64,000 nucleotides of DNA from Streptomyces iconiensis (GTDB lineage Bacteria; Actinomycetota; Actinomycetes; Streptomycetales; Streptomycetaceae): NCBI RefSeq assembly GCF_028657195.3, contig NZ_JANCPR020000005.1, positions 124,001-188,000 on the forward strand, written 5' to 3'. The position numbers and the translations under genes were made by a program. The notes beneath the pieces are model-generated. The model was not told where the DNA came from. It did no database searches and worked only from the letters and a program-made list of their open reading frames with translations. This document shows, in pieces, positions 32,440 through 57,911 of this stretch (positions are counted from its first letter, which is position 1; each line of letters opens with the position of its first letter).

Positions 32440-32541
32440 CGTACCCTTGTCTCCCTCCGCCCCGGGAAACCACTACGCTAACGGACCACCCTCCCCGTGG
32501 ACCGTACGGCGGTCAGCAGCGCATCGACAGGAGAGTCTCTC

Positions 32542-32802
32542 GTGCCGAAGTCACGGATCCGAAAGAAAGCCGACTTCACGCCTCCGCCGGAGAAGAAGGC
32601 CACGAACATCGACCTCCGTGGCGGTGGTCGCCGGTGGGTGGCACCGCTCATGCTGGCGATGTTCGGCATCGGCCTCGCCTGGATCGTGGTGTTCTACGTC
32701 ACGGACGGCGGGCTGCCGATCGACCCACTGGGCAACTGGAACATCGTGGTCGGCTTCGGCTTCATCGCGACCGGGTTCGTGGTCTCCACCCAGTGGAAGT
32801 GA
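32542..32802 (+). CDS. crgA: Cell division protein CrgA
   Basis: An 86-residue two-helix membrane protein that coordinates FtsZ-ring assembly with hyphal growth and sporulation septation in Streptomyces. [19 protein letters not shown] is the conserved cytosolic start, followed by helix 1 ([21 protein letters not shown]), the short external loop [14 protein letters not shown], and helix 2 ending STQWK. GTG 32542 follows AGGAGAG. The upstream in-frame residues from 32497 are not family-like. Its stop abuts a DnaA-box cluster. Confidence 0.95.
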
Positions 32803-32805
32803 GAG

Positions 32806-33059
32806 TTATCCACAGGCTGATCCACAGCCTTGGAAAACTCACAAGATCTGTGGATAACTTTCCGAGTGTTGACGCCGATGTGACCGGGGCTCCGTAGGGA
32901 CGAGCCCCGGTCGCCCCGTAATTGCAGGGGAAACGGACGTCTGAACGACTACGGACGGCGGTACCGCGCCCCCCGTACTCCATGCACAAGATCCCGCACT
33001 CGCTGTGGACAACTCACCCGGAGCGAGGCTCTGTCCACCGTTGGGAGCGGTTCTCCACC
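32806..33059. promoter_or_regulatory. DnaA-box cluster downstream of crgA
   Basis: Perfect TTATCCACA at 32806-32814, TGATCCACA at 32818-32826 (one mismatch), and inverted TGTGGATAA at 32849-32857 lie within 52 bases. A perfect inverted Streptomyces-type box (TGTGGACAA) follows at 33004-33012, with weaker CTGTCCACC at 33031 and TTCTCCACC at 33051. The 281-base gap contains no gene. It is about 24 kb from oriC and could titrate DnaA. Confidence 0.7.
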
Positions 33060-33083
33060 GCTGCCGGGGCGTGGGCAGCGGCG

Positions 33084-33980
33084 TCATGGGGTGAGCTGCA
33101 TCGTGCGCACCACCAGTACGGCGACGGTCGCCAGCAGGGCCAGCGCGAAGGCCCCGTACTGCACCAGCTTCCGCTTCTCGCGCGGCGCGTGAACCATCGC
33201 GTAGGCGAGCAGCACGCCCACGACGAGGCCGCCGATGTGAGCCTCCCACGCGATGTTGTTCCAGGTGAAGGTGAAGACCAGGTTGATCGCGAGCAGGATC
33301 AGTACCGGCCGCATGTCGTAGCGCATGCGCCGCATCAGGATGGCCGTCGCGCCGAACAGCCCGAAGATCGCTCCCGAGGCGCCCAGCGAGGGCTGCTGGG
33401 GCGCCGCGATCATGTAGGTGAGCGCGCCGCCGCCGAGCCCCGAGACCAAGTAGAGCCCGAGGAAGCGCACCCGGCCCAGCGCCGCCTCCAGCGGCGGGCC
33501 CAGGAACCACAGCCCCAGCATGTTCATCGCGATGTGCCAGATCTCCTGGTGCAGGAACATCGAGGTGAGCAGGCGGTACCACTGGCCCTCGGCGACGCCC
33601 TCGACGGGCCCGTACGCCTCGGTGGCCGCTTGCCCGAACAGCAGCATGCGGTCCAGTAGCTGGTTCCCGCCGGCCAGGACCGCGAGGAACACCGCCACAT
33701 TGACGCCGAGCAGCGCCTTGGTGACCAGTCGGGGGTCCGACGTGAGGCTGCCGCCCGCTATCGTCCTCGGCTGATTCGCGCCCGGCGGGTGTCCGGTGCC
33801 CGAGCCTGAGCTGACGCACTCGGGGCACTGGAACCCGACGGAGGCGGGGATCATGCAATCGGTGCAGATCGCACGCTCGCACCGGGCGCAGGAGATCCCC
33901 GTTTCCCTGTCGGGGTGCCGGTAACAGAACGCCGGGCCCCGCTGCTCCGCCCGGTCCCCCGGCTGTCCGTTCTGCTCCAT
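33084..33980 (-). CDS. Rhomboid intramembrane serine protease with N-terminal zinc finger
   Basis: A 298-residue rhomboid protease. A B-box-like zinc finger comes first (CYRHPDRETGISCARCERAICTDC in two halves, about 19-42, then CPEC), a linker, and six to seven membrane helices. Catalytic Ser is in SLGASGAIFGLFG, catalytic His in WEAHIGGLVVG, with the HxxxN-like helix HIAMNMLGLWFLG. It cleaves membrane proteins within the bilayer; targets unknown. ATG 33980 gives MEQNGQPGDR. Confidence 0.92.
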   Translation of the reverse strand: MEQNGQPGDRAEQRGPAFCYRHPDRETGISCARCERAICTDCMIPASVGFQCPECVSSGSGTGHPPGANQPRTIAGGSLTSDPRLVTKALLGVNVAVFLAVLAGGNQLLDRMLLFGQAATEAYGPVEGVAEGQWYRLLTSMFLHQEIWHIAMNMLGLWFLGPPLEAALGRVRFLGLYLVSGLGGGALTYMIAAPQQPSLGASGAIFGLFGATAILMRRMRYDMRPVLILLAINLVFTFTWNNIAWEAHIGGLVVGVLLAYAMVHAPREKRKLVQYGAFALALLATVAVLVVRTMQLTP

Positions 33981-56914: not shown

Positions 56915-57029
56915 CTTCAGCCGCCTCCTGCTGCTGCTCCTGCTCGTGCTGTTGCCGGGGACCAGTCTGACGCACGGCACTGACAGTCGGTGCGGGTGCG
57001 GGTCAACTCGTCGGGATCCGGGTAGATGC

Positions 57030-57620
57030 CTGAGGCGCCGAGTTGTGCACAGCCCCGACTTCGAAGCGGTTCTCTGGCTCTCTAGGTGTAGTCGTAGTAG
57101 TAGGGGTTGTGGAAACGGTGGAAAAGCTCGTTTCCGCAGCTCAGCCCGGGAATTTTGTCCACCGCGCCTGTGGGTGGACCGGTGGAGGAACGGGGGGTCT
57201 CTGTGGACGCCCGAAAGTTCTGCACAGCCCGCCCACAGACAGAGCGGGGTTCCCCACAGCGGCGCCCACAGATTTACCCACCTTTCCCACAGGCCAATCC
57301 CTGCCCTCGGTGTGACCGCTTTCACTCGGACCGGTGAGAGGGCGCGTTGCCTTGCCGAACAGTGGACAGAGCTGTGGAGAAGGGGGTCGAAGCTGGGGAA
57401 AAGATCGTCCTGCTTGTGGGCGCCCGGTGGACAACCGGAAGAGCCGCTGCCCGCGCCCCGCGCCCTCCACACCCTGTGGAGGGCGTTCGCCCACAAATAC
57501 ACAGCCGCATGACCTCGGCATACCCTGTCCCGACCAGGCCAGTTGTGGACACAGTTGGGACAACTGACAACGTCCCCAGGGTGTGGAAGTAGGAAGCCCT
57601 GCGCATCTGTGGACCAGCGG
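57030..57620. other. oriC: Chromosomal replication origin oriC
   Basis: Between dnaN and dnaA lies a 997-base gap packed with DnaA-box-like 9-mers in both orientations. Closest to TTGTCCACA are TTGTGCACA 57043, TTGTCCACC 57155, TGTGGAGAA 57373, GGTGGACAA 57426 and TGTGGACAC 57544, each with one mismatch. Weaker ones include TTTCCCACA 57283, TTCCCCACA 57250, TTACCCACC 57274, TTCTGCACA 57218, TGTGGACGC 57202 and TGTGGACCA 57608. This many boxes at this position is the Streptomyces oriC pattern. The flanks 56950-57030 and 57690-57910 show nothing clear. Confidence 0.95.
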
Positions 57621-57649
57621 CCTCTCGGCGCATGTATTCGAACAGCGAA

Positions 57650-57680
57650 GAGCCCTCGGGCAGTTGCTCCCCGAGGGCTC
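57650..57680 (-). terminator. Terminator between dnaA and oriC
   Basis: GAGCCCTCGGG and CCCGAGGGCTC form an 11-bp perfect stem with a 9-base loop. It is about 230 bases beyond the dnaA stop and shields the origin from dnaA transcription. Confidence 0.8.
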
Positions 57681-57911
57681 GGTGGGTCTGAAGGAGGCTT
57701 CGCGCGACCGTGAGGCCGTCGGCTGAGCCTCCGTCGGGCGTTCAGTCAGCAGGGGCTCAGGCTTCGTAGGGCGTTCGCCGGAGTGCTGACGAGCCGTCGT
57801 CCCGGTCGCTGACGGGCCGCTGCTGGGGCACGCGGAAACGCCGGTTGAGCCCCCAGCCGGCCTCTGCTGAGGGCTCCGTAAAGCGGGCGCCGGGCGTCAG
57901 GCGGGCTGTGT

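What the first reader, a model, noticed from the sequence alone, without database searches (positions are those of the whole stretch)
32806..33059. DnaA-box cluster beside crgA, 24 kb from oriC
Two perfect DnaA boxes, one with E. coli-type TTATCCACA and its inverted partner 35 bases later, plus a perfect TTGTCCACA-type box and three weaker ones, all in a gene-free gap. In a genome this GC-rich a perfect TTATCCACA is rare by chance. Placement just after a cell-division gene suggests a DnaA titration site or DnaA control linking initiation with division.
Basis: partly seen in the sequence, partly recalled or inferred. Interest (0 to 1): 0.62.

Follow-up and report, generated by a model that had tools for sequence, protein, structure and literature searches.

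The report
Ancient DnaA site beside crgA
Just after the cell-division gene crgA, near the place where the chromosome starts to copy itself, sits a cluster of likely docking sites for the start-of-copying protein DnaA, and similar sites sit at the same spot in most of the related actinobacteria looked at, which suggests an old, shared regulator of chromosome copying.

Summary
The 281-bp gap between convergent crgA and rhomboid genes carries three perfect DnaA boxes (32806+, 32849-, 33004-) and a one-mismatch box (32818+), 23.8 kb from oriC. The other two 'weak' boxes are noise-level. All 136 distinct same-genus loci read keep at least two perfect boxes, with box C invariant and spacings mostly in helical steps. 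Outside the genus, 54 of 80 loci of the class (30 families) have a perfect box within 200 bp of the crgA stop and 75 of 80 one within one mismatch; control windows gave 0-3 perfect. Mycobacterial loci: 78 of 80, 0 perfect in 471 kb of flank. A second cluster (serS-pheA) is genus-only: 8 of 8 inside, 0 of 22 outside.

Best reading: a DnaA-binding site that limits initiator activity after oriC fires (datA-like). Promoter-type control of crgA is not supported. DnaA-box clusters are known in S. coelicolor, and a paper dominated by Rv0010c/Rv0011c (crgA by recall) names a DnaA interaction site in M. tuberculosis. That these are one ancient element was not remarked in what I could search. No binding or function was tested here.

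The parts
32542..32802 (+). crgA, 86 aa, septation protein; its 3' end is the conserved address of the site (start codon chosen by likeness to other CrgA; the longest ORF starts at 32497)
   Evidence: ORF; PF06781 CrgA E 2.7e-28
32803..33083 (.). Gap between convergent crgA and rhomboid genes, holding the cluster; first 83 bp are 49% GC, the gap 63%, the window 70%
32806..32814 (+). DnaA box A, TTATCCACA (perfect)
   Evidence: a perfect plus box precedes C in 134 of 136 distinct genus loci
32818..32826 (+). DnaA box B, TGATCCACA (one mismatch); slot 12-13 bp after A, variable in sequence
32849..32857 (-). DnaA box C, TTATCCACA (perfect), identical in all 136 distinct genus loci; GATCTGTGGATAAC in 131 of 136
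32868..32884 (+). Conserved 17-bp block, here GTTGACGCCGATGTGAC, 20 bp after the start of C; on the other strand it resembles an MtrA direct repeat (lead only)
   Evidence: TTGACG in 118 and TTGACGCC in 110 of 136 loci; MtrA consensus from a PMC13189361 passage
32880..32914 (+). GC-rich hairpin, possible terminator between the convergent genes; no T-run
   Evidence: RNA fold of 32875-32925: -30 kcal/mol, z -4.9; terminator scan found none
32983..32993 (.). Block TGCACAAGATC before box D; contains a degenerate TTGTGCA box on the minus strand
   Evidence: CACAAGATC before D in 82 of the 120 loci (of 136) where that script found D
33004..33012 (-). DnaA box D, TTGTCCACA (perfect)
   Evidence: a second minus perfect box in 130 of 136 distinct loci, TTGTCCACA in 114 of them
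33084..33980 (-). Rhomboid protease gene, convergent with crgA
   Evidence: PF01694 E 4.6e-39
56915..57911 (.). oriC interval between dnaN and dnaA: no perfect TTRTCCACA, six one-mismatch boxes (reference point)

Best explanation
The gap holds an ancient, oriC-linked DnaA-binding control site. SHOWN BY SEQUENCE: strong DnaA boxes A, C and D plus weak ones sit just 3' of crgA, keep orientation and mostly helical spacing in the genus, and box sites recur at the same address across the class and in part beyond it. INFERRED: DnaA binds the strong boxes, spreads to the weak phased ones and builds a small oligomer. Because the site is about 25 kb from oriC it is duplicated soon after initiation, so fresh copies capture DnaA, or promote its conversion to the inactive form, and help prevent early re-initiation. 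This would work like E. coli datA or the DnaA-box clusters of B. subtilis and S. coelicolor. The neighbouring conserved motif may bind a partner (candidate MtrA in Streptomyces; another factor in mycobacteria), as IHF does at datA.
For: Genus: 136 of 136 distinct loci (135 genomes) have at least 2 perfect boxes in the 420 bp after crgA, 129 at least 3, box C is identical in all. A-C spacings fall only at 31-35, 41-46 and 52-57 (134 loci); C-D spacings at 135-137, 146-150 or 157-161 in 120 of 130, with at least 21 and 24 changes of class on a tree. Class: 54 of 80 loci perfect and 75 of 80 within one mismatch, 19 and 27 of 30 families; seven control windows gave 0-3 perfect and 1-6 within one mismatch, of 77-80. 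Mycobacterial loci: 78 of 80, with 0 perfect (92 one-mismatch) in 471 kb flank. Unasked, the box is the commonest 9-mer of the stretch, or ties for it. crgA lies 18-57 kb from dnaA in 56 of 57 genomes. Literature passages: DnaA-box clusters of S. coelicolor repress untimely initiation (PMC5742627, PMC4585315, PMC10950094). A paper titled on a cryptic DnaA interaction site holds Rv0010c 61 and Rv0011c 58 times (listing only).
Against: No binding, copy-number or timing data were obtained here. 73 of 80 mycobacterial loci have just one perfect box, which is too few for simple titration and points to a nucleating or catalytic site. There the box lies shortly 5' of a co-directional gene, so a transcriptional role is open. 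26 of 80 class loci have no perfect box and 5 of 80 none within one mismatch. Of 20 loci from other classes, 7 have a perfect box and 14 one within one mismatch. By recall, the cluster with the highest affinity and the deletion phenotype in S. coelicolor was D78, not this one. Spacing statistics are not corrected for relatedness beyond counting changes on a quick tree, and part of the A-C classes reflects which slot holds the perfect box.
Confidence: 0.52

Rival explanations
1. The site acts on local transcription: DnaA bound in the gap stops read-through between convergent crgA and rhomboid, or tunes crgA or its neighbour with the replication cycle.
For: Fixed address at the crgA 3' end across families. 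In 63 of 80 mycobacterial loci a co-directional ORF, a PH-domain gene (PF10756) in the one tested (L258), starts about 155 bp after crgA in the examples printed, while the box is usually at 111-113, so there the box lies just 5' of that gene. A hairpin is also present in the window.
Against: The box persists with both a convergent rhomboid (51 of 80 class loci recognised, all convergent) and the co-directional mycobacterial neighbour. Promoter and terminator scans of the gap found none, though they expect about none by chance. Outside the genus perfect boxes are mostly on one strand (of 60 loci: 22 minus only, 15 plus only, 6 both, 17 none), so an RNA hairpin of paired boxes is not conserved.
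Confidence: 0.17
2. DARS-like reactivation site: the small DnaA complex releases ADP and raises active DnaA, a positive rather than negative control.
For: Compact few-box layout with an inverted strong box; one perfect box in 73 of 80 mycobacterial loci; an adjacent conserved motif could hold a helper.
Against: The closest literature passages assign repression, not activation, to clusters in S. coelicolor. Nucleotide exchange was not tested.
Confidence: 0.12
3. Origin-domain site: DnaA bridges this locus and oriC (looping or handcuffing) or helps segregation, with little effect on free DnaA.
For: Proximity to oriC (median 25.2 kb, 56 of 57 genomes); helical spacing suggests a shaped complex.
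Against: No contact data; synteny alone can keep the distance.
Confidence: 0.12
4. Remnant or secondary replication origin.
For: DnaA boxes in a low-GC stretch (49% against 70%).
Against: The stretch is short, and oriC lies intact 24 kb away. A DNA-unwinding element was not searched for.
Confidence: 0.04
5. Chance boxes.
For: None after controls.
Confidence: 0.01

Closest known systems
S. coelicolor DnaA-box clusters (Smulczyk-Krawczyszyn et al. 2006, not held; cluster names H69, H24, D78 recalled)
   Same: DnaA boxes outside oriC, close to it by a PMC4585315 passage. crgA is number 3854 in the S. coelicolor column of a PMC4255298 table; by recall that gene is on cosmid H69, so this may be the H69 cluster itself. 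The serS-pheA cluster seen here may be D78 (recall).
   Different: I could not read the paper, so identity is not proven. As recalled it treats Streptomyces only; the class-wide recurrence, invariance of box C and helical spacing come.
M. tuberculosis 'cryptic interaction site' of DnaA (PMC7738170, seen in search listings only)
   Same: The paper holds Rv0010c 61 and Rv0011c 58 times. Rv0011c is crgA, and the site lies between the two genes, by recall. 78 of 80 mycobacterial loci carry a perfect box after crgA, and the next gene is a PH-domain gene in the locus tested, as Rv0010c is by recall.
   Different: Mostly one perfect box and a neighbouring palindrome instead of three perfect boxes. 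The paper contains 'crgA' 0 times and 'Streptomyces' 0 times, so it does not appear to link the two.
E. coli datA / DDAH
   Same: Non-coding DnaA-box cluster that represses untimely initiation; passages call the S. coelicolor clusters analogous or similar in function.
   Different: datA depends on IHF; no such site was looked for here. DnaA-ATP hydrolysis untested.
B. subtilis DnaA-box clusters (Okumura 2012, as cited)
   Same: DnaA-box clusters that repress untimely initiation.
   Different: Different gene addresses (recall); no homology expected.

Membership tests
Chromosomal DnaA-box cluster outside oriC | Several consensus boxes in a short stretch, beyond chance | tested here: met
   3 perfect boxes in 207 bp; shuffles give 0.24 per 64 kb
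Chromosomal DnaA-box cluster outside oriC | Conserved in relatives at the same address | tested here: met
   136 of 136 distinct genus loci with at least two perfect boxes; 75 of 80 class loci with a box within one mismatch
Chromosomal DnaA-box cluster outside oriC | DnaA binds it | not testable with these tools
   No binding data; literature link for mycobacteria from listing and recall only
S. coelicolor H69 cluster | Same locus as the published cluster | tested here: inconclusive
   crgA = 3854; cosmid name is recall; paper not held
datA / DDAH | IHF-type helper site beside the boxes | not tested
   A conserved neighbour block exists (118 of 136) but its protein is unknown; no IHF consensus was searched
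datA / DDAH | Stimulates DnaA-ATP hydrolysis | not testable with these tools
   Biochemistry needed
DARS | Stimulates ADP release from DnaA | not testable with these tools
   Biochemistry needed
Replication origin (oriC) | DNA-unwinding element and autonomous replication | not tested
   Only GC content was measured
Promoter-type DnaA regulation of crgA | Boxes overlap the crgA promoter | tested here: not met
   Boxes are 3' of crgA in a convergent gap

The most novel reading that the evidence does not exclude
Actinomycetota share one ancestral DnaA-control element locked to the 3' end of crgA near oriC: a phased DnaA assembly site with a clade-specific partner motif beside it (MtrA-like repeat in Streptomyces, ATCACA-N4-TGTGAT palindrome in mycobacteria). 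The S. coelicolor cluster and the mycobacterial cryptic DnaA site would be the same element, and this would be the phylum's counterpart of datA.
Probability: 0.45. Interest if true: 0.8.

Novelty: new member of a known kind. Interest (0 to 1): 0.62.

Why it matters
How actinobacteria stop re-initiation is less well understood than in E. coli (general knowledge). A non-coding site kept at one gene address across the class, apparently the same address as a DnaA site named in a mycobacterial paper, gives a small defined target: edit the boxes while keeping crgA, and measure initiation. It would also connect two lines of work (Streptomyces DnaA-box clusters and mycobacterial DnaA sites) and suggest a reason why crgA stays close to oriC.

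Tried and rejected
Chance: rejected. Plain oriC proximity: rejected, since flanks in the same loci nearly lack boxes and the serS-pheA cluster is genus-only (8 of 8 genus loci, 0 perfect boxes in 90 kb of 22 non-genus loci; the 30 loci are the best-scoring of 117 genomes with a match, not random). The script mislocated or missed some serS starts, so the whole-locus count is the one to use. RNA hairpin A/C: in the window it folds well alone (z -4.0), but with the next stem included the A/C pairing is not in the minimum, and outside the genus perfect boxes are mostly on one strand. MtrA as partner: the block fits the published repeat only partly; strict GTNAC-N6-GTNAC hits 0 of 136 while GTCAC-N6-GTCAM hits 75 of 136. 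The MtrA papers whose passages I saw name crgA 0, 0 and 0 times and, in one, twice, where the passage shown is a reference; their supplements were not seen. One faulty regex returned 0 and was replaced. The regex missed 89 of 140 loci; one search replaced it (140 of 140 found). The first alignment for the genome scan was too diverse. A first Pfam test of a downstream mycobacterial gene (L291) used a poor fragment and found nothing; L258 gave PF10756.

Sampling limits: genus loci are the 30 best and 80 next-ranked places listed plus the 30 best, not a random draw; 140 loci become 136 distinct after dropping 4 repeats of the same locus. 10 of 199 genomes lack the strict A-C pattern; I read two of them, G043 (A is TTGTCCACA) and G120 (A is TTATCCACC). 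Class loci were picked by me: 80 of 118 non-genus matches. Other-class loci: 20 of 57 genomes with a CrgA match. crgA-dnaA distance: 57 of the 63 genomes; for the other six I entered no crgA position. The genus is called Streptomyces from gene content and because CrgA of L130 equals the S. coelicolor protein as I recall it; no tool named it.

Full report
What is there. The gap 32803-33083 lies between crgA (+) and a rhomboid gene (-), so two genes end into it. It holds three perfect TTRTCCACA boxes and one with a single mismatch. The window expects 0.24 perfect boxes and has 4, three of them here; the whole assembly has 57 in 9.83 Mb. oriC in this window has no perfect box but six one-mismatch boxes, so by consensus alone the crgA cluster has the stronger individual sites. 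The gap is 23.8 kb from oriC.

Conservation in the genus. I took 140 loci (30 best and 80 next-ranked DNA matches, 30 best protein matches), which reduce to 136 distinct loci in 135 genomes. Within 420 bp of the crgA stop every one has at least two perfect boxes; 129 have three or four; 7 have two. Box C is TTATCCACA on the minus strand in all 136, and its ten positions are the best conserved of the stretch. A perfect plus box precedes it in 134, and a second minus box follows in 130. Six loci (L039, L055, L074, L078, L095, L109) lack the second minus box; L123 lacks a perfect plus box and the only one of L043 lies after C. An exact A-C pattern was found in 189 of 199 genus genomes, once in 183, twice in 6, and never for the reversed control; the list of places is capped, so I did not place every hit.

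Spacing. A-C spacings in 134 loci fall in 31-35 (26), 41-46 (82) and 52-57 (26), with none at 36-40 or 47-51. C-D spacings in 130 loci fall in 135-137 (4), 146-150 (96) and 157-161 (20); ten lie elsewhere (112, 115 twice, 143, 154, 155 twice, 167, 180, 244). The classes are about 11 bp apart, roughly one helical turn. On a quick tree of the neighbouring DNA (330-600 bp after crgA) the A-C class changes at least 21 times and the C-D class at least 24 times, so the pattern is not one inherited event. Caution: part of the A-C classes reflects which of several plus slots carries the perfect box; counting only distinct spacing values the concentration is weaker (resultant 0.57 for A-C and 0.40 for C-D at 10.5 bp, against 0.79 and 0.73 over all loci); and I did not simulate a null on the tree.

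Beyond the genus. For 60 loci of other families of the order and class, the 200 bp after the crgA stop hold 68 perfect and 89 one-mismatch boxes in 12 kb, against 6 and 45 in the other 154 kb; random flank windows give on average 0.48 of 60 loci with a perfect box, against 43 observed. With 20 more class loci, 54 of 80 have a perfect box and 75 of 80 one within one mismatch; by family 19 and 27 of 30. Seven control windows at other offsets gave 0-3 perfect loci and 1-6 within one mismatch, of 77-80. Without asking for the motif, TTATCCACA is the commonest 9-mer by loci (35 of 80) and TTGTCCACA the commonest by families (16 of 30) in that stretch. In 20 loci from other classes of the phylum, 7 have a perfect box and 14 one within one mismatch within 200 bp, with 1 perfect and 9 one-mismatch in 50 kb of flank. 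In 80 mycobacterial loci (best 80 of 556), 78 have a perfect box within 200 bp; the 471 kb of flank hold no perfect box and 92 with one mismatch.

Controls for trivial causes. Proximity to oriC does not explain it, because the flanks are just as near. A second cluster of the same genome, in the serS-pheA gap, has perfect boxes in 8 of 8 genus loci but none in 90 kb of 22 non-genus loci, so deep conservation is not a general property of such clusters. Gene arrangement does not explain it either: where recognised, the downstream gene in class loci is a convergent rhomboid (51 of 80), while in mycobacterial loci no rhomboid was recognised, a co-directional ORF follows crgA in 63 of 80 (a PH-domain gene, PF10756, in L258) and a convergent cyclophilin gene lies beyond in 78 of 80. 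crgA lies 18.2-57.4 kb from dnaA in 56 of 57 genomes with both on one contig (55 of the 57 are of the genus); G012 is the exception.

Neighbour motifs. Genus loci carry TTGACG 19-21 bp after the start of box C in 117 of 136 (118 including one at 31), extended to TTGACGCC in 110. Its complement, GTCACA-N5-GTCAAC, resembles the MtrA direct repeat quoted in PMC13189361. MtrA binds oriC and dnaA in S. venezuelae and M. tuberculosis by the abstract and passages of PMC5487470, so MtrA is a reasonable but untested candidate. Mycobacterial loci instead carry ATCACA-N4-TGTGAT near the box in 72 of 80, and never in the flanks; of 100 other loci five have it, four of them of the Mycobacterium-like family f6 and one from another class.

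Mechanism. Shown: conserved boxes, orientation, spacing, address. Inferred: DnaA binding, oligomer formation, and a role in limiting DnaA after initiation. I prefer a nucleating or activity-control site over a passive sink, because 73 of 80 mycobacterial loci keep just one perfect box. In mycobacteria the box also lies shortly 5' of the PH-domain gene, so a transcriptional role there is open.

Prior knowledge. Passages of three papers state that S. coelicolor has DnaA-box clusters that repress untimely initiation, one of them adding that they are close to oriC, citing Smulczyk-Krawczyszyn 2006; that paper is not held. That its cluster names are H69, H24 and D78, that crgA is on cosmid H69 and that serS-pheA is on D78 is recall; crgA being number 3854 is from PMC4255298 (passage). 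PMC7738170, on dnaA and a cryptic interaction site in M. tuberculosis, was seen in search listings only: Rv0010c 61, Rv0011c 58, crgA 0, Streptomyces 0 occurrences. That Rv0011c is crgA and that DnaA was shown to bind between the two genes is recall. In the listings of my ten searches I saw no paper that joins these facts, but the library is open-licence only and most hits were not opened. So the kind is known, this instance may be a published cluster, and the new part is that the site looks like one deeply conserved element.

Noticed in passing
L257-L336 (mycobacterial loci), within 200 bp after the crgA stop: Palindrome ATCACA-N4-TGTGAT beside the DnaA box in 72 of 80 loci, 0 in their flanks; elsewhere in L203, L206, L244, L245 (family f6) and L229 (another class) of 100 loci. 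Binding protein unknown.
   Followed up: partly
window 32868-32884: Conserved 17-bp block after box C whose complement resembles an MtrA direct repeat.
   Followed up: partly
L257-L336, 200-299 bp after the crgA stop: A CRP-type TGTGA-N6-TCACA site occurs once in 68 of 80 mycobacterial loci, all in the same 100-bp bin.
   Followed up: no
L210 (G000:C56:26343 and 26632): Second DnaA-box cluster between serS and pheA, genus-only; may be the S. coelicolor D78 cluster (recall).
   Followed up: yes
L212 (G000:C30:164693 and 164952): Two perfect DnaA boxes around the 5' end of a recD2-like helicase gene.
   Followed up: no
L039, L055, L074, L078, L095, L109: Six genus loci lack box D while keeping A and C; relatedness not checked.
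   Followed up: no
G012 (L039): crgA and the dnaA match are 6.3 Mb apart on one contig, unlike 56 other genomes: rearrangement, odd record start or a wrong dnaA match.
   Followed up: no
L067 and L087 (G196): One genome has two different crgA loci, each with the cluster, on two contigs: duplication or contamination.
   Followed up: no
L279: Record titled as an Acidobacteria MAG carries a mycobacterial-type crgA locus (83% identity): probably mislabelled or contaminated.
   Followed up: no
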